Shown here in pieces: positions 1,697 through 13,728 of a DNA stretch of 39,527 nucleotides. The stretch's first letter is position 1. Each line of letters begins with the position of its first letter. The DNA lies in assembly GCA_016926405.1 (NCBI GenBank), contig JAFGOQ010000094.1, positions 1 to 39,527 on the forward strand, in the 5' to 3' direction. Below the pieces are notes generated by a model. It was not told the DNA's origin and ran no database searches. It worked only from the letters and a program-made list of their open reading frames with translations. Position numbers and translations under genes: made by a program. Source of the DNA: Bacteroidales bacterium. GTDB taxonomy: Bacteria; Bacteroidota; Bacteroidia; Bacteroidales; UBA6680.

Positions 1697-2077
1697 TTAA
1701 TCTATTACTTCAATCATTTTGAAAGGTATTTTGATTATTGACTCATAATCTTCACCTGCTTCAAGCATATCTTCGTCGTCTTCGTCGTAGTACCAGTTAA
1801 TAGATACTTCGTTACCAGCTTTTTTAATTTTTTCAAGTTTTTTGAAAATATCAAGAATACATTTCGACGAACTAGTGTTGAAATATTCCAAATGCATTTT
1901 AACCGATGTTGTTGATTTTGGTTTTTTTGAATATTCGTTAATCCAGTCAAAAACAGGTTTGTAAAATTCAGTTGAGTTTTCTGGTATCGAACGACCTTTG
2001 AATTCAAGCATGCCTTTTTCTGCGTTAAGCAAAATTTCGGGAGTCTTGAGTGTTCCGTTAATTGTTAAGGTTTCCAT
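1697..2077 (-). CDS. SiaC family regulatory phosphoprotein (DUF1987)
   Basis: 126 aa, TPEILLNAEKGMLEFKGRSIPENSTEFYKPVFDWINEY is characteristic of SiaC; next to a SiaB-like gene. Confidence 0.85.
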   Translation of the reverse strand: METLTINGTLKTPEILLNAEKGMLEFKGRSIPENSTEFYKPVFDWINEYSKKPKSTTSVKMHLEYFNTSSSKCILDIFKKLEKIKKAGNEVSINWYYDEDDEDMLEAGEDYESIIKIPFKMIEVID

Positions 2078-2082
2078 ATTAA

Positions 2083-2679
2083 TCAGTTTATTTCTTTATT
2101 TATATTAATGTTTAAACGATAAAAATAACAATTGTCGTTTATCGCAGAAAATTTATAGTCTAATTTGTTTCCTGTTTTTCGTGCAATATCCATAAGTCCT
2201 AGTCCGCCACCGCCTTTATCCGAAAAAGTATCGTTGTTTAGAGTTGTTTTGTATAAATCTCGAAGTTGATCTTTACTTAATGAATTAATTTTTGATATCC
2301 TCTCTTCAAGATACTCTTTCTGTTTTTTTTGAATTAGGTTTGCTGTAGATATTCTAAACTTATCATCAAGTAAAGATAAAATAAAACAGCCAAATTTTTC
2401 GTTTTCGTTAATTCCTTCGATGTCTGTTGGGGTGTCAGAATGGTGATACAGATTTTGCAAACTTTCAACAAGAAGATGATAAACCCGTTTTTTAACAGCT
2501 GCCTTAACATTAATACATTCTAGTTTGCTTTCAACAATGTTTAATGTGTTAGATAGAATCTCAGGAGTTATGTCACCTTTAAAAGCTAACAAAACGTCTC
2601 CATTTATCATTTCTGTATAAAGATTTTCCAACTCTTTTTTTTTGTTGTTCAATTTATTAAAAGTATTGGTAGTACACAA
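2083..2679 (-). CDS. SiaB family protein kinase (DUF6272-like)
   Basis: 198 aa; LLVESLQNLYHHSD and GGGGLGLMDIARKTG look like an HATPase-like kinase fold; just upstream of SiaC in the same operon. Confidence 0.8.
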   Translation of the reverse strand: MCTTNTFNKLNNKKKELENLYTEMINGDVLLAFKGDITPEILSNTLNIVESKLECINVKAAVKKRVYHLLVESLQNLYHHSDTPTDIEGINENEKFGCFILSLLDDKFRISTANLIQKKQKEYLEERISKINSLSKDQLRDLYKTTLNNDTFSDKGGGGLGLMDIARKTGNKLDYKFSAINDNCYFYRLNININKEIN

Positions 2680-5979: not shown

Positions 5980-6216
5980 AGTTTGCTGTATTAGTTATTT
6001 TGGGATTCAAAATTAGGGAAATTATTTAACTTTTCAATAATTATGACAGAACAAAAACCAACTTTGTTTCTGTTGTATATGTCTCATGTAGTAAAGTTAG
6101 TAGGCTACTCTGTTTACAGTAAACATTGTGATTACCTCTTAATTTGTATCTATAGTGCCAGTAAGCACAACCAACTTCCATCTTCTAACTTTCAACTAAT
6201 TATTGTTTTTTACTTC

Positions 6217-6294
6217 TACTTCGTCGATTTCCGCTTTGCTCCAATTCAAATGCGGAGCATTCACGAACACCTTAATATAATATAGTGAGTGAGT
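6217..6294. repeat. 78-bp palindromic insert splitting a CRISPR repeat (copy 1)
   Basis: Lies between the 5' part (6202-6216) and 3' part (6295-6325) of a CRISPR repeat; nearly identical to 6371-6448. Confidence 0.85.
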
Positions 6295-6370
6295 AATTTG
6301 TATCTTTAGTGCCAGTAAGCACAACATCCAACATTACGATTTTATGAAATGTAGTGTTGTGATTTGCTTT

Positions 6371-6448
6371 GACTTCGTCGATTTCCGCTTCGCTCCAATT
6401 CAAATGCGGAGCATTCACGAACACCTTAATATAATATGATGAGTGAGT
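6371..6448. repeat. 78-bp palindromic insert splitting a CRISPR repeat (copy 2)
   Basis: Lies between GTTGTGATTTGCTTT (6356-6370) and AATTTGTATCTTTGGTGCCAGTAAGCACAAC (6449-6479); contains imperfect arms TTCGTCGATTTCCGC / GCGGAGCATTCACGAA. Confidence 0.9.
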
Positions 6449-7673
6449 AATTTGTATCTTTGGTGCCAGTAAGCACAACTTTAGGTTCTACGGATACAGG
6501 CAGTATACAGTTGTGATTTGCTTTCAATTTGTATCTTTGGTGCCAGTAAGCACAACTATACATAAAGAATCTCGGTATACCAAGGTGTTGTGATTTGCTT
6601 TCAATTTGTATCTTTGGTGCCAGTAAGCACAACAATAGCCAACCTTTTAAATCAAGCCATTTAGTTGTGATTTGCTTTCAATTTGTATCTTTGGTGCCAG
6701 TAAGCACAACATACCGAGCTTTGTATCGCCCAACGTTATCGTTGTGATTTGCTTTCAATTTGTATCTTTGGTGCCAGTAAGCACAACACAGGAGGGGCAC
6801 TTTGATAACTCTAATTGGTTGTGATTTGCTTTCAATTTGTATCTTTGGTGCCAGTAAGCACAACAGCGTCACGTCCGTACTTATCGAGTAAAGTGTTGTG
6901 ATTTGCTTTCAATTTGTATCTTTGGTGCCAGTAAGCACAACTGTATAGTGATTTCGGTGATTACAACACTAGTTGTGATTTGCTTTCAATTTGTATCTTT
7001 GGTGCCAGTAAGCACAACTTTTATAAAATTTTGAACTCATGCATACTTGTTGTGATTTGCTTTCAATTTGTATCTTTGGTGCCAGTAAGCACAACAGCTT
7101 CGTTTTGTGATAAATTAGAGTTAACGTTGTGATTTGCTTTCAATTTGTATCTTTGGTGCCAGTAAGCACAACAAAGAAAATTCAAGTGCACTGGGTGCGG
7201 TGGTTGTGATTTGCTTTCAATTTGTATCTTTGGTGCCAGTAAGCACAACATCCCAAACTAGGACCAGTAACAGTGATTCGTTGTGATTTGCTTTCAATTT
7301 GTATCTTTGGTGCCAGTAAGCACAACGTTAACATTATCAAACAAAGTTCATAAAGTGTTGTGATTTGCTTTCAATTTGTATCTTTGGTGCCAGTAAGCAC
7401 AACCTACTGTTGCAACTAATCCAGTTCCAACAAGTTGTGATTTGCTTTCAATTTGTATCTTTGGTGCCAGTAAGCACAACTGGTATGATGTCGACGAAGG
7501 TGCTTATGTAGTTGTGATTTGCTTTCAATTTGTATCTTTGGTGCCAGTAAGCACAACCTGCTGGCGCTAAAGATTTATTGTTCAGTGTAGTACGGGTGGG
7601 TTTACGATTGCTAAAACTATACACAAACTGCCGAATAGTACAAATAAGGAGAGTTTTTTTTTATCCTAATTAA

Positions 7674-8012
7674 TTAAAATAGCTCTAATTGTTGTACCAT
7701 TTGTGGTTTATCTTTTGTTTTTTGTGCCTGAAAAAGTTCCATCGCACCAAATTGTTTGTCGGTTATTTTTATTATTCCTACATGACCATATTCGGGCAAC
7801 GACTGTTTTACACGTTTTATATGCACATCGCCATTATCGCGCGACAAACAGTGACGCAAATAAATTGAGAACTGAAACATACTAAAGCCATCGTTAAGTA
7901 GTTCTTTACGGAATTTTGATGCCACTTTACGTTGCTTTTTTGTTTCGGTTGGCAAGTCGAAAAATACCATTATCCACATAACTTTATAACTATTTAGTGC
8001 TTGTTGGCTCAT
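7674..8012 (-). CDS. cas2: CRISPR-associated endonuclease Cas2 (start revised to [13 protein letters not shown]...)
   Basis: [44 protein letters not shown] is Cas2; the ORF-track start at 8090 would overlap cas1 by ~100 bp, while ATG 8012 overlaps by 23 bp. Confidence 0.92.
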
Positions 8013-8901
8013 AAAATGTTGGATAAATAATTTTACGTCTTGTTCCCTGATAGCATTCAAATAACGAGTTTGTGGTTCGGCTAACAGCAACCATTAGTGG
8101 GCTTCTTTTTCCATCAATTTCAACATCGGTAGTAAGTAATTGTAGAATATCGCGTTTAATAGCTGGTGTTAAATTGTCGTCAATAATATTTTCGTTAAAT
8201 AGCTTATAAACTAATTGGTCGGCAAAAGGTCGGTATGGTTCCATTATATCGTCGGCAAGGCAATACATATTATATTTGTTTGAATGGAACAATCCAAACG
8301 TGGGGTGCATTCCCGAACTTACTAAAGCTCGTGCAACAATGGCTCTTATTATAGCATAAGCATAATTTAATAGCCTATTAGGATTACCTCCGTCGGGGTT
8401 GCGCAAAAAATCATCGTCAAACAACTCTTTCCAATAGTATGCCGCTGCTCGTCCTTCGGTGTTTTTCGGATCGCCTGGGTCTACATTATCTTTTAACCAA
8501 TTAATGCGCGATGCCTCTTTGTTTAGTTTTGTTAATAATGTAGCCTGATTGTTGAGCTTACACTCTACAGTTTGTTTCCAAAGTTGCTTTTTTAATGGTA
8601 ACGAAACTTCTATTTGTGTCCGTATGCGCTCGGTCATTACATGGTTTCCGTTAAATGGCAACATTAACGATGCTGGCAAATGGCTTTGGTTACAGCTTAC
8701 TATAGCTGTTAAATTGTCTTGTAACGACTGTATTAATTGGTGTGTAATTGTTATCTGGGGGTTGTCTAAAACAATAATACCAATATCTTCTACAGGTATT
8801 GTTGCCCGACCATCTTTTTGGTCGGGCTTATCAATAACTAACTGTTTGTTTTTAAAGCTTAAATAGGCTGGGTTACCAAAATATAAAGTTCGTTTTATCA
8901 T
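7990..8901 (-). CDS. cas1: Type II CRISPR-associated endonuclease Cas1
   Basis: [60 protein letters not shown]. Confidence 0.95.
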
Positions 8902-8913
8902 AGTTGTTAATTT

Positions 8914-11900
8914 TTAATACTCACCTACATGTACTACTCTTCCAAGATGGTTTATTCTTACTTTAATGATATCTTTCAGAGAATCTGTATTTCTAATCCT
9001 TTTATAACTAATGTCTTTTAATTCTTTTTTATCTTCTACTGTAGTCTCTAAATGGAATCTAAATACATAATCTTTTGATGTTATTTTTTGTACCCTATAA
9101 AGATTTTTAGCAATTACCTGCATATTATCTGTCGACAAAAGATCATACTCTTTAGGGTCGAAACCATCGGAAGGAAACAGAAACATTTCGTTGCTTTTTA
9201 GTGTGAACATAAATTTCCAACCTAAATTACTATTGTGTTCTTTATCAATAATTGGTAAACCAGCGTTAACTCGCGATACAGCTTCGAAAAACGAAACCAC
9301 TTTCTCTTGTAGCTTACCTTTTTCGTCTTCGTAAATAGCTATATGGTGGTTGTTACCTGTACTAACAAAATCAACGGGTTGTGATTTTCCGTTACTATCT
9401 AATAGTAGTTCGCCACGGTTATTGCGCTTATCGTGCAGGGCAACAGTGTTTTTAACTCCCGATATTCGAACTCTTTTTAGCGAAACACCTTTCTCTTTGT
9501 TTATCCAAATTGGGTTTTTATCGAGATTAGAAAAAGCTAGTTTACTATTGCCGTTAAACTCTTTTAATCTGTTATAAAGTAGTTTCTGAATACCTAAGTC
9601 AATAACTTTCTCAATTTTAAGCTCGGGGCTTATCTCTTTTCTTATAGTATAGTCAACCTCGTATAACTTAACTTTTACCTTTTCGGGTAGAGTTAAAGTT
9701 TTATCGGCATCCAGATAAATAGGATTTTTTGCTAAGCTGTTTTTTGCAGTAAAAGCTTTCTTAGGGTCGCCACCAAACTCGTTTAATCGTTTTAGTAAAG
9801 CCTCTTTATAAATAGGCTTGGTTACATTATTAATATACTCAGCGGTAAATTGCAAGCCAATTTTCTCCTCTTTTACAACAGCTTGTTTCATGCTGCCGTA
9901 AATAGTCTCTTTGTGTAGCTGCCCTCTGGGTGTTAGCTGTACTTTTGTTAAAGACAACTTGTTGCCACCTTGCTTAGTTTTATTAATATTTTTTGTTACT
10001 ACCTTGTTTTTTGCTTTAAACGAAATTAATATCGACTCTAAATGAGTTTTTGCAGAACCTCTAAAATTATCGAAAGGTTTTTTAAACAGTAGTTTTCCCT
10101 TATCGTTTCTGTAAAGTTCTTTCTGCTCAATACCACTTGCATCGCTTGTTTTTATGCTTCTGGCATTTAAATTATTTAGGTATTGAATAAAGCTATGTTT
10201 GGTAAATGCTATAGTAAGCGCATCCATTGCGTGGTGGCGATGATCGTTACGTTTGCTCCAATCTTTAATTCGTTCTTTTGATTCTCCATTTTTGCCTTCA
10301 ATGGTTTCTATAAGACCTAACTCTTTATATTTTCCGAAATTAAGCTCTTTCATAGTATCAACAAGCCCCCAATCTTCGCGTAATCTGCTAGTAACACTTC
10401 CGGTTGTTGTATAAACCTTACGTATAACTTCGTTCAACATTTGAGTAGCCATTTTTGCTATGTACTGACTATTTCGCAAGTCTCTATCGATAAAGTCAGA
10501 CGGTATATCCTTTTCGGCCATTAATAGTTTCAGGTATTTTCCTTTCGATAAACCATCGGTTTTGGCTTTGTACAGTCGCTCAATTCTACCTTTGTACTCT
10601 TCAACAAACTCTTTATCATATTTTTCTGATATAAAATCGATAGCTGTTTTATCGCCTTTTTCAAGATTTATGTTGCGATATTCTAATGTTTTGTTCGAGA
10701 ACGAATCGTCGAATAGTTTAGCTTTTGGTATAATGTGTTCAATATCTATCTCTTTCGAAAATAACTTTTCGCGAGGAATATAAGTATTTGAATAGAGTGT
10801 TTTAAAGCCGTTGCTCTCTAGTTCGCAGTATAGCTTATATCTAATAATATCGTTGCGTGTTGGGTTCTTAATACCAAACTCTTTGCTTAGTAGATCTCTA
10901 ATTTTTTCGTGATTAATTTTAGCCTTGTTAATATTTAATGTGTCGTTTTCTCTCTCTTTAGCACTCTTTTTTAATTCGCGAGCCAACTCAACTCTAACTT
11001 CATCGGGCTTGCCTAAGTCTGGATCGTCTATAATGGCATTAACCACATTAACCATTTGATTTAGAATTTTCTCTACAACAGGGTTTCTTAAACTGTTCTT
11101 TTTTAGAATGTTTAATTTGTCGGATAAAATACGTGTCTCTATTTCCTCTTTTGTTAGGTACGAAGAGTGATTGTATTTTGCATAGTCGCAAGCTACATCG
11201 TATTGGTTTCCCTCTTTTAAGAAGGGTATAATTTTGCTAATTGCTCGTGCACTTAAGCTACCATAGTCCGATTGTAATCTGATATTTGATAATAAACGAG
11301 CATAATTCTCTTTAAAACCAAAATGCTTCTGCAGAGCTTTTATTACCTCTTTGTCGCTCTCAATAGAGTAGAGTATATGCCATAGTTGGTAGCTAGGCTG
11401 CTTGTCGAACTCGTTACCCGAAAGGTTTGTGTTAAAGTTTAGTATATCTGCGTTTATACCTATTTCTTTAAAAATAGTAGTAGTGGTTTCAATAATTTCT
11501 TCGACACTTATTTTTTCGAAATCTATATCGTACCCCTCTTGGTGTAGTATTGTTTTGTAAATATCGAAAAGAGCCTTGTTTGTATTATTTCCTTCTACCT
11601 CTTTATAATTTATAGACCACTCTTTGGGTTTTTTAAATAGCAATTCAAGAACTTGGGTATCTTTTAATTTGCCACGTATGTTTAATTCGGCAAAAAGTTG
11701 TTTTTTCTGTTCAATGTCTAGATTGTATTTGGTTTTAGTCGACTTCTGGGTTACCTCAATATTATTTATTACTTGCCACACTTTAAATTCTTGAAATAGT
11801 GGGCTCGACTTAGGAATAGCTTTGTGGTATTTCTCGAACTCGCAGTTTGAAATAAGATGCTTCTGCGATTTTAAAGGACGTTGGTAAAAAATTGTTATAT

Positions 11901-12975
11901 CGCGTATTTCGTGCTTAATATTGTTTGTTAATTCTGGATAATATTTTGCTTGCGTTTCCCATATTATTTCAAATTCGTCCATGTAATCTTGTCTGTAGAA
12001 TACCTGATTTTTGAAAGAGTAATTAGGGTTTTCGCTAAGCTTTGCGTGCATAAATTCGCCAACAGTTTGTTTGTTGAAGTATAGTTCTTTACTGCGGTCG
12101 CTAATTGCACCAAGATATCCGCTAGAGCTGTTTAAGTTGTTGTTTACCTCGGCTAATACATAGGCTAGTGAATCTAACGATAGTTTTTCGGTAATAGCTT
12201 TAGAGCGTAATTCAAATGTTTTTAGTTTTTTCTCGTCTCTGCTGCCTTTAATGTCGGCTGTATAAATATTGTGTTCTTTAAGTAAAATTTTTGATGTTGC
12301 CATTTTGCCTACATCCTGCAATTGGTTGTAAGTTTTGGTATTAAGTACTTCGGGGTAGTGGTTTGCATGGTTATTCCATATAGCATCGAATTCGTTTTTA
12401 AGATCGGAGCGATAGAAATCGGGAATAAATTTACCTCCATCTTTCAATAAATTAAAGACAAGTTGTCCGGGGGTACATTTTGTCTGGTACAGTTGTTTTG
12501 CAATTTCCATACCATCAATAAGAGTTCCCTCTTCTTCGTTTTTTGCCTTTCGGCTACTTTTATAGCCTCTTTTTTTATTAATAGACAATAGTACGCGGGC
12601 AAATTCATCTTTTTCAATTTTTTCTTTCGCGGCTTTAGCTCTTAAAAGCAAAGTGTTGTGTGTACTGTTTTCTCCTGTTTCTGTTAAAACAGTATTATCA
12701 TCAATAAACCCAATACTTTTAAGTGTATTAATAAGATTAGCTCGTCGTTGTTTAAAACGTTGTATTCCTCTACGTGCCCCTCGCTTTGAAGTTCTGTCGG
12801 CATTTACAGTTATTGATTTACCCTTTTCAAAATCTGTTTGTTCATCGGTAGAAAGAGGGTTAACTCTAACACCTAAGCGTACTATTTCCGATTTCTCGGA
12901 ACTGTTTTCTGCCTCTTTTACATAAGCCCATCCAATAGATGTGGTTCCTAAGTCGAGTCCTAAAATCTTTTTCAT
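8914..12975 (-). CDS. cas9: Type II-C CRISPR RNA-guided endonuclease Cas9 (1353 aa), nuclease motifs apparently intact
   Basis: RuvC-I KKILGLDLGTTSIGWA; arginine-rich bridge helix RTSKRGARRGIQRFKQRRANL; RuvC-II DEVRVELAREL; HNH EIDIEHIIPKAKLFDDSFSNKTL; RuvC-III DHRHHAMDALTIAF. Confidence 0.97.
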   Translation of the reverse strand: MKKILGLDLGTTSIGWAYVKEAENSSEKSEIVRLGVRVNPLSTDEQTDFEKGKSITVNADRTSKRGARRGIQRFKQRRANLINTLKSIGFIDDNTVLTETGENSTHNTLLLRAKAAKEKIEKDEFARVLLSINKKRGYKSSRKAKNEEEGTLIDGMEIAKQLYQTKCTPGQLVFNLLKDGGKFIPDFYRSDLKNEFDAIWNNHANHYPEVLNTKTYNQLQDVGKMATSKILLKEHNIYTADIKGSRDEKKLKTFELRSKAITEKLSLDSLAYVLAEVNNNLNSSSGYLGAISDRSKELYFNKQTVGEFMHAKLSENPNYSFKNQVFYRQDYMDEFEIIWETQAKYYPELTNNIKHEIRDITIFYQRPLKSQKHLISNCEFEKYHKAIPKSSPLFQEFKVWQVINNIEVTQKSTKTKYNLDIEQKKQLFAELNIRGKLKDTQVLELLFKKPKEWSINYKEVEGNNTNKALFDIYKTILHQEGYDIDFEKISVEEIIETTTTIFKEIGINADILNFNTNLSGNEFDKQPSYQLWHILYSIESDKEVIKALQKHFGFKENYARLLSNIRLQSDYGSLSARAISKIIPFLKEGNQYDVACDYAKYNHSSYLTKEEIETRILSDKLNILKKNSLRNPVVEKILNQMVNVVNAIIDDPDLGKPDEVRVELARELKKSAKERENDTLNINKAKINHEKIRDLLSKEFGIKNPTRNDIIRYKLYCELESNGFKTLYSNTYIPREKLFSKEIDIEHIIPKAKLFDDSFSNKTLEYRNINLEKGDKTAIDFISEKYDKEFVEEYKGRIERLYKAKTDGLSKGKYLKLLMAEKDIPSDFIDRDLRNSQYIAKMATQMLNEVIRKVYTTTGSVTSRLREDWGLVDTMKELNFGKYKELGLIETIEGKNGESKERIKDWSKRNDHRHHAMDALTIAFTKHSFIQYLNNLNARSIKTSDASGIEQKELYRNDKGKLLFKKPFDNFRGSAKTHLESILISFKAKNKVVTKNINKTKQGGNKLSLTKVQLTPRGQLHKETIYGSMKQAVVKEEKIGLQFTAEYINNVTKPIYKEALLKRLNEFGGDPKKAFTAKNSLAKNPIYLDADKTLTLPEKVKVKLYEVDYTIRKEISPELKIEKVIDLGIQKLLYNRLKEFNGNSKLAFSNLDKNPIWINKEKGVSLKRVRISGVKNTVALHDKRNNRGELLLDSNGKSQPVDFVSTGNNHHIAIYEDEKGKLQEKVVSFFEAVSRVNAGLPIIDKEHNSNLGWKFMFTLKSNEMFLFPSDGFDPKEYDLLSTDNMQVIAKNLYRVQKITSKDYVFRFHLETTVEDKKELKDISYKRIRNTDSLKDIIKVRINHLGRVVHVGEY

Positions 12976-13016: not shown

Positions 13017-13101
13017 TACAAATTGAAAGTAATCACAATAAGGATTATTCCGTTGTGAAAACATTTAAAGCGGCTTTTCTTCTGGAGTGTCGCTTTTTTT
13101 T
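13017..13101 (+). ncRNA. tracrRNA
   Basis: Anti-repeat TACAAATTGAAAGTAATCACAAT (13017-13039) complements the repeat 5' half with a one-nt bulge; then AAGGATTATTCCGTTGTGAAAACA and a terminal hairpin AGCGGC...GTCGCT followed by an 8-T run. Confidence 0.92.
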
Positions 13102-13299: not shown

Positions 13300-13668
13300 A
13301 AAAACGTAACGTGGTTTCACCCAAAACCTAACATGGTCTTACCCAAAACCTAACGTGGTCTTACCCAAAACCTAACGTGGTTTTACCCAAAACGTAACGT
13401 GGTTTCACCTAAAACCTAACGTGGTTTTACCCAAAACCTAACGTGGTTTTACCCAAAACCTAACGTGGTTTCACCTAAAACCTAACGTGGTTTCACCCAA
13501 AACGTAACGTGGTTTTACCCAAAACCTAACGTGGTTTCACCTAAAACGTAACGTGGTTTTACCCAAAACCTAACGTGGTTTCACCCAAAACCTAACGTGG
13601 TTTCACCCAAAACCTAACGTGGTTTTACTCAAAACCTAACGTGGTTTCACCCAAAACCTAACGTGGTT
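13300..13668. repeat. 22-bp tandem repeat array, 17 units
   Basis: Unit CCCAAAACCTAACGTGGTTTTA/CA; complete units start at 13320 and recur every 22 bp to 13650 with no indels; a partial unit precedes. Confidence 0.97.
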
Positions 13669-13728
13669 TTTTATCCTTAGTGTGGTGTGTGATTCTCGAG
13701 AAGGGTATTACTATTGTATGAAGCAAAA

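What the first reader, a model, noticed from the sequence alone, without database searches (positions are those of the whole stretch)
6202..6479. Identical-length 78-bp palindromic inserts split two adjacent CRISPR repeats at the same nucleotide
Repeats at 6202-6325 and 6356-6479 are each interrupted after repeat position 15. Each carries a 78-nt insert replacing position 16, and the 31-nt 3' part resumes intact. The copies (6217-6294, 6371-6448) differ at only a few positions, although the 5' repeat halves beside them have diverged much more. The insert contains an imperfect hairpin (TTCGTCGATTTCCGC...GCGGAGCATTCACGAA). Possible origins: site-specific insertion of a REP/MITE-like element into CRISPR repeats, gene conversion between repeats, or duplication of an already inserted repeat during spacer acquisition. 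The last would mean Cas1-Cas2 copied a ~124-bp repeat.
Basis: seen in the sequence. Interest (0 to 1): 0.72.

Follow-up and report, generated by a model that had tools for sequence, protein, structure and literature searches.

The report
Mobile hairpin element inside CRISPR repeats
Two neighbouring repeats at the old end of a bacterial Cas9-type CRISPR array have been split at the same nucleotide by a short hairpin element that is scattered across Bacteroidota genomes and has hit the same spot in CRISPR repeats of at least two other, distantly related bacteria, so this is a recurrent site-specific insertion and not a one-off accident.

Summary
Two adjacent 124-bp repeats (6202-6325, 6356-6479) of a type II-C array (cas9-cas1-cas2, 17 repeats of 47 nt) carry a 77-bp net insertion after repeat nt 15, at the leader-distal end. 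The insert is not unique to this array. Its core, TTACTCAC-N(10-24, AT-rich)-GGTGTTCGTGA plus a small hairpin whose arms vary but stay complementary, occurs in 30 of 393 Bacteroidales genomes (up to 39 exact copies) and across Bacteroidota. It lies inside longer palindromic repeats, in the apical loop of a group II intron domain V, and at gene starts. Two other CRISPR arrays, from another Bacteroidales family and from a Cryomorphaceae MAG, carry it in their outermost repeat(s) at the homologous nucleotide and in the same orientation; in the latter the last two repeats are again both hit. Best reading: a non-autonomous REP/MITE-like element with a preferred site in II-C repeats, tolerated at the trailer end. 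Recurrent insertion (or a local hop) and gene conversion both explain the doubling; Cas1-Cas2 copying fits poorly. The mobilising enzyme is not shown. A RAYT transposase is a candidate: its genes co-occur with the element and sit beside cas9 in six related genomes, but are not flanked by it.

The parts
6125..6171 (+). R0: outermost, degenerate CRISPR repeat without insert (leader-distal end)
   Evidence: Alignment to consensus, 7 mismatches of 47
6202..6216 (+). R1: 5' part of the first interrupted repeat (diverged)
   Evidence: 5 of 15 nt differ from R2 and consensus
6217..6294 (-). Insert 1; element core on - strand at 6231-6299
   Evidence: CM R1 match 50.4 bits, E 1.6e-8; 74 of 78 nt identical to insert 2
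6295..6325 (+). R1: 3' part of the repeat
   Evidence: 30 of 31 nt identical to consensus
6356..6370 (+). R2: 5' part of the second interrupted repeat (perfect consensus)
6371..6448 (-). Insert 2; element core on - strand at 6385-6453
   Evidence: CM R1 match 51.5 bits, E 8.8e-9
6449..6479 (+). R2: 3' part of the repeat (perfect consensus)
6510..7557 (+). 14 uninterrupted CRISPR repeats with 30-nt spacers (younger part of the array)
7558..7673 (.). Presumed leader between array and cas2
   Evidence: Inferred: perfect repeats at this end, degenerate ones at the other; the same layout in related arrays L297, L299, L305
7674..8090 (-). cas2
   Evidence: PF09827 E 3e-17; TIGR01573 E 9.1e-21
7990..8901 (-). 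cas1 (type II)
   Evidence: TIGR03639 E 1.1e-90
8914..12975 (-). cas9, 1353 aa
   Evidence: TIGR01865 E 4.1e-154; RuvC_III and HNH_4
13017..13038 (+). tracrRNA anti-repeat, complementary to about repeat nt 2-24, i.e. across the insertion point; tracrRNA presumably runs to about 13104
   Evidence: blastn of the repeat against the window with the array masked; the T-run end is read from sequence

Best explanation
A short non-autonomous, REP/MITE-like element of Bacteroidota has inserted into type II-C CRISPR repeats at a preferred site. Written on the repeat's reverse strand, the site is 5'-(A/T)TT|GAAAGC-3', inside the repeat:anti-repeat region, and the element enters always in the same orientation (TT-[ACTCAC...GGTGTTCGTGA-hairpin]-TT). 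In this array two neighbouring repeats at the leader-distal end carry it, most likely through two insertions at the same preferred site (the second perhaps a hop from the neighbour) or one insertion followed by a short gene conversion. Insertions would survive mainly at the trailer end because those repeats are no longer templates for spacer acquisition. Shown: the element family, its dispersal, the identical site and orientation in three arrays, and the trailer position. Inferred: that it moves as DNA, that a Y1 HUH transposase (RAYT or IS200-like) moves it, why the trailer is favoured, and that the hit repeats make poor crRNAs because only 15 of about 24 nt of the anti-repeat duplex remain and the TTG-N18-TATCTTTG promoter-like pair in the repeat is split.
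For: Exact core pattern in 30 of 393 Bacteroidales genomes, 0 with the reversed control pattern, 39, 22, 21 and 17 copies in G071, G297, G343 and G170. The core is shared between otherwise unrelated long repeats (only query 69-123 of a G297 repeat matches most G071 and G170 copies). Two further CRISPR arrays carry it at the homologous nucleotide: L090 (G146) GTTGTGAATTGCTTTC|insert|AAAATTAG and L258 (Cryomorphaceae) GTTGTGAATCGCTTTC|insert|AAATTGTT, each in outermost repeats, and in L258 in the last two. CM scores 48-58 bits for the four intact CRISPR-borne copies. Hairpin arms covary: a 6-bp stem is complete in 17/58 copies versus 3.6 expected with arms swapped, permutation p < 0.0005. Core in the apical loop of a group II intron domain V.
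Against: No other copy in the host's own draft genome or in two congeners, so the donor is not seen. Ten other arrays examined have no insert, so the event is uncommon. No empty versus filled site pair was found within one species. The mobilising enzyme is not identified: none of 27 RAYT genes examined has the element within 1 kb.
Confidence: 0.72

Rival explanations
1. One insertion only, then copied into the neighbouring repeat by gene conversion or template switching between repeats; no intrinsic site preference is needed to explain the pair.
For: The inserts are 95% identical with the same boundaries and the same 1-nt shortening against the clean insertions in L090 and L258; repeats supply homology on both sides. 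No other donor copy in the genome.
Against: Flanks next to the left boundary keep their own identity (nt 15 and 16 differ), and R1 keeps A at nt 30, so the tract would have had to end almost at the insert boundaries. The same site is hit in two unrelated arrays, so site preference exists anyway.
Confidence: 0.35
2. Cas1-Cas2 copied a 124-bp repeat: the insert entered the leader-proximal repeat, the next spacer acquisition duplicated it, and a later precise excision or recombination restored a clean leader repeat.
For: Adjacent repeats carry it in two independent arrays (window, L258), as duplication at acquisition would give.
Against: The younger repeat at 6510 is clean. Divergence is 5/15 in the 5' part versus 5/109 in insert plus 3' part (p = 0.002), whereas a whole-repeat copy should diverge evenly. 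In G146 only the outermost repeat has it.
Confidence: 0.06
3. The terminal repeats with inserts are a functional part of II-C arrays (for example a promoter, terminator or boundary element) that was domesticated.
For: Trailer-end position, identical site and orientation in three lineages; a RAYT gene lies in the same cas locus in G146.
Against: Absent from ten other arrays; the same core occurs in many places without CRISPR; the insert splits the promoter-like pair and adds no recognisable one (one search finds no excess of sites).
Confidence: 0.07
4. Assembly artefact of a metagenome-assembled genome.
For: The window is a contig of a draft genome (233 contigs), and the read data cannot be seen.
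Against: The two interrupted repeats differ at 10 positions and are separated by a normal spacer; equivalent structures exist in two unrelated assemblies.
Confidence: 0.02

Closest known systems
REP sequences with REP-associated tyrosine transposase (TnpA_REP/RAYT), in particular the Bacteroidetes subclass 2.6 with 'atypical secondary structures' (PMC6006769)
   Same: Short interspersed hairpin DNA with a conserved unpaired part and stems that vary but stay paired; occurs in tandem (C14 of G071) and as an inverted pair (G124); same phylum; genomes with the element have RAYT genes far more often (23/30 versus 5/30).
   Different: No GTAG/GTGG foot; longer (46-78 nt); not found within 1 kb of 27 RAYT genes, whereas subclass 2.6 genes are described as flanked by their structures. 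The published 2.6 structures are in a supplement I could not compare.
Rickettsia palindromic elements (RPE; two of them CGTC-tagged, PMC3733652)
   Same: Small palindromic elements that enter coding and RNA genes. Here too copies sit at gene starts, some in frame, and inside a group II intron.
   Different: Different sequence and phylum; no CGTC tag; here with a fixed site in CRISPR repeats.
MITEs and PATEs (IS200/IS605-derived miniature elements)
   Same: Non-autonomous and dispersed; insertion next to TT with no obvious terminal inverted repeats, as for Y1 elements.
   Different: No parent transposon with the same ends was found; larger MITEs with true TIRs (G297) merely contain the core.
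Insertion sequences in CRISPR arrays
   Same: Mobile DNA interrupts an array.
   Different: Here the element is tiny, hits the same nucleotide of the repeat in three lineages and lies in the trailer-end repeats.

Membership tests
Type II-C CRISPR-Cas locus (host of the insert) | cas9, cas1, cas2 without csn2/cas4, tracrRNA anti-repeat, regular repeats | tested here: met
   the only ORFs between the array and the cas9 start are cas2, cas1 and cas9 and short overlapping frames
REP sequence (TnpA_REP/RAYT system) | 5' GTAG or GTGG tetranucleotide at the foot of the hairpin | tested here: not met
   Invariant columns are TTACTCAC and GGTGTTCGTGA. Subclass 2.6 REPs lack GT[AG]G too (PMC6006769).
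REP sequence (TnpA_REP/RAYT system) | Element flanks the RAYT gene | tested here: not met
   0 hits within 1 kb of 27 RAYT genes with a relaxed pattern; one weak CM hit 1.1 kb away, E 0.025
REP sequence (TnpA_REP/RAYT system) | RAYT gene present in genomes that carry the element | tested here: met
   23/30 versus 5/30, Fisher p = 6e-6; genome size differs between the groups and was not controlled; 7 element-bearing genomes show no RAYT at the threshold
REP sequence (TnpA_REP/RAYT system) | Hairpin with variable but paired stem | tested here: met
   Swapped-arm test, permutation p < 0.0005
MITE (DDE type) | Terminal inverted repeats and target-site duplication | tested here: not met
   Ends ACTCAC... 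and ...(T)T are not inverted repeats; a TT on both sides could be a 2-bp duplication or part of the element
MITE (DDE type) | Dispersed, non-autonomous, multi-copy | tested here: met
Rickettsia palindromic element | In-frame insertion in coding genes | tested here: inconclusive
   Copies at starts of pth and other genes read through in frame in several cases, but orthologues without the element were not compared
Excision/transposition competence | Filled and empty sites in close strains, or transposition in an assay | not testable with these tools
   One genome per species is held; no strain pairs

The most novel reading that the evidence does not exclude
In Bacteroidota a domesticated Y1 HUH transposase (RAYT) encoded beside cas9 works together with the type II-C CRISPR system and drops its hairpin element at a fixed nucleotide of the oldest repeats, marking or silencing the trailer end of the array, so that the element and the RAYT form an accessory module of these CRISPR loci.
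Probability: 0.08. Interest if true: 0.88.

Novelty: new variant of a known kind. Interest (0 to 1): 0.62.

Why it matters
It describes what appears to be an undescribed, phylum-wide hairpin element in Bacteroidota and shows that CRISPR repeats themselves can be a preferred landing site, hit at the same nucleotide in three lineages. That makes the fate of damaged repeats at the trailer end directly testable. It also points to a recurrent neighbourhood of RAYT transposase genes with cas9 for which I found no description.

Tried and rejected
(1) Element elsewhere in own genome: blastn, 3-mismatch pattern, exact pattern and CM all find only the two CRISPR copies. (2) Core always inside long palindromes: arms are enriched (9% strong versus 2.6% on swapped pairs) but most copies have none, so not a general rule. 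(4) Hairpin covariation: the first register tried gave no signal; the register was wrong by one base, and the corrected test, run over several registers and stem lengths, is strongly positive at the expected one. (5) IS200-type transposase genes as source: no core at 12 strong Y1_Tnp loci, nor at RAYT genes. (6) Further CRISPR-borne copies by pattern in 395 Bacteroidia: one hit, G556, not a CRISPR. (7) Core in phage or plasmid records: none by blastn; nine exact pattern matches in IMG/VR, most GC-rich and probably chance. (8) Motif in the literature: none found in the held papers. (9) Apparent interrupted repeat in G071 array L305 is an N gap.

Full report
Observation. The window holds a type II-C CRISPR-Cas locus: cas9 (8914-12975, -), cas1 (7990-8901, -), cas2 (7674-8090, -) and an array of 17 repeats at 6125-7557 with a 47-nt repeat and 30-nt spacers. 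A tracrRNA anti-repeat lies upstream of cas9 at 13017-13038. The two differ at 5 of 15 positions in the 5' part, 4 of 78 in the insert and 1 of 31 in the 3' part. They sit second and third from the degenerate end of the array. The end next to cas2 has perfect repeats, and related arrays have the same layout, so the inserts are at the leader-distal, oldest end.

The insert belongs to a family. In the host genome (2.9 Mb, 92% complete) there is no other copy. In other Bacteroidales, weak blast hits revealed a recurrent core. Written on the - strand of the window it is TTACTCAC, 10-24 mostly A/T bases, GGTGTTCGTGA, then a small hairpin. The exact pattern occurs in 30 of 393 Bacteroidales genomes, with zero matches for the reversed control pattern, and in up to 39 copies per genome. 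In 43 diverse copies 19 columns are invariant (most of this follows from the search pattern). The consensus fold pairs TTAC.CAC with GTG...GTGA, but those pairs do not vary and so prove nothing. The neighbouring small hairpin does vary: a 6-bp stem is complete in 17 of 58 copies against 3.6 expected when arms are swapped between copies. The folding energy of that stretch is also lower than shuffles on average (mean z -0.56, s.e. 0.13).

Where the element lives. The same core lies inside long repeats that are otherwise unrelated between genera, in tandem rows of 48-54 bp, as an inverted pair, and in the apical loop of a group II intron domain V in G067, which Rfam recognises with 40 extra bases where the family has 6. 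In several Flavobacteriia it lies at gene starts: GTGAGTAA is followed directly by the body of pth, cmk and other genes, often with an upstream ATG in frame. Long complementary arms around the core are enriched but present in a minority. So the core behaves as a unit of its own and not as part of any one larger repeat.

CRISPR is a recurrent target. A repeat scan of all fetched loci found two more arrays with the core. In G146 (another Bacteroidales family) the outermost repeat reads GTTGTGAATTGCTTTC, 46 inserted bases, then AAAATTAGATTATGCGATCTTTGACACAGC. In an uncultured Cryomorphaceae contig (L258) the last two repeats read GTTGTGAATCGCTTTC (the outer one degenerate), about 55 inserted bases, then AAATTGTTATTTATC. 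The insertion point after GCTTTC is the homologous point in the window (GCTTT, one base altered), and the orientation is the same. The covariance model scores the four intact CRISPR-borne copies at 48-58 bits. Three arrays with different repeat sequences hit at one nucleotide, in one orientation, in their outermost or near-outermost repeats is far beyond chance: two further arrays matching the first at one position of about 47 and one of two orientations is roughly 1e-4, before counting position in the array. Ten other arrays of related genomes have no insert, so insertion is uncommon, or uncommonly retained.

How the pair arose. If Cas1-Cas2 had copied a 124-bp repeat, both parts and the insert should have diverged alike and the next repeat should carry the insert too. 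Neither holds: the 5' part of repeat 6202 is far more diverged than its insert (p = 0.002) and repeat 6510 is clean. Two insertions at a preferred site, the second possibly a short hop, or one insertion and a short conversion, both fit. That the Cryomorphaceae array also has two neighbours hit favours a systematic cause, but does not decide between these two.

What moves it. This is inferred. The ends show no inverted repeats, the flanks are TT on both sides, and hairpins are part of the element, as for substrates of Y1 HUH transposases. RAYT proteins of the type described as subclass 2.6, mostly from Bacteroidetes and associated with atypical structures without GTAG (PMC6006769), are found in 23 of 30 genomes with the element against 5 of 30 without (Fisher p = 6e-6; genome size not controlled). 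The host genome has two related reading frames. In six Bacteroidales genomes a RAYT-like gene lies in the cas9 locus: G146, between cas1 and cas9; G064, G026 and G067; G006 and G097 by position. In G146 it shares the locus with an interrupted repeat. NCBIfam calls the G146 protein a REP-associated tyrosine transposase at E 9e-11, below its curated cut-off, and Pfam Y1_Tnp hits are absent or below threshold. Against this route, the element is not within 1 kb of 27 such genes, and the window's own cas operon has no RAYT.

Likely effect. The anti-repeat pairs with repeat nt 2-24, so an insert after nt 15 leaves about two thirds of the duplex, and crRNAs made from the spacers just upstream of each interrupted repeat should be impaired. 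The repeat also holds TTG-N18-TATCTTTG, which resembles the Bacteroidota -33/-7 promoter (my knowledge of that consensus; not tested), and the insert splits it. Neither effect has been measured.

Verdict. A real, recurrent, site-preferring insertion of a short REP/MITE-like element into II-C CRISPR repeats. The element itself appears undescribed in the papers I could search, but its kind is known. The link between RAYT genes, cas9 and the element is the open and most interesting part.

Noticed in passing
L319:3154-3795 (G146); L298 (G064:C88:5814); L303 (G026:C14:93420); L307 (G067:C20:109064); G006:C75:10465; G097:C97:46009: RAYT-like (TnpA_REP) genes lie beside cas9 or cas1 in type II loci of six Bacteroidales genomes, far more often than expected for a gene present once to a few times per genome.
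   Followed up: partly
L215, L233, L236, L239, L244, L246, L252, L263 (pth); L170, L206, L208, L209, L241, L249, L256, L261, L267: In Flavobacteriia the same element sits at the 5' ends of genes; GTGAGTAA(A) is directly followed by the gene body, and an upstream ATG AAA is often in frame, suggesting insertion right after the start codon.
   Followed up: partly
L060:1379-1490 and about 1 kb away (G067:C18): Element inside the apical loop of group II intron domain V, with a second, similar copy about 1 kb away.
   Followed up: partly
window 13310-13700: Tandem array of an about 22-bp unit (ACCCAAAACCTAACGTGGTTT) between the tracrRNA region and the HU-like gene upstream of cas9.
   Followed up: no
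window repeats, for example 6510-6556: Each repeat holds TTG-N18-TATCTTTG, resembling the Bacteroidota -33/-7 promoter, so transcription may start inside repeats as in Neisseria II-C arrays.
   Followed up: no
L102-L110, L277 (G297): A MITE of about 215 bp with ends AGTCCACTCCGAAAA / TTTTCGGAGTGGACT (hundreds of first-look candidates in one genome) carries the element inside.
   Followed up: no
window 1697-2679: SiaC-like and DUF6272 genes side by side, as in Sia-type signalling modules.
   Followed up: no
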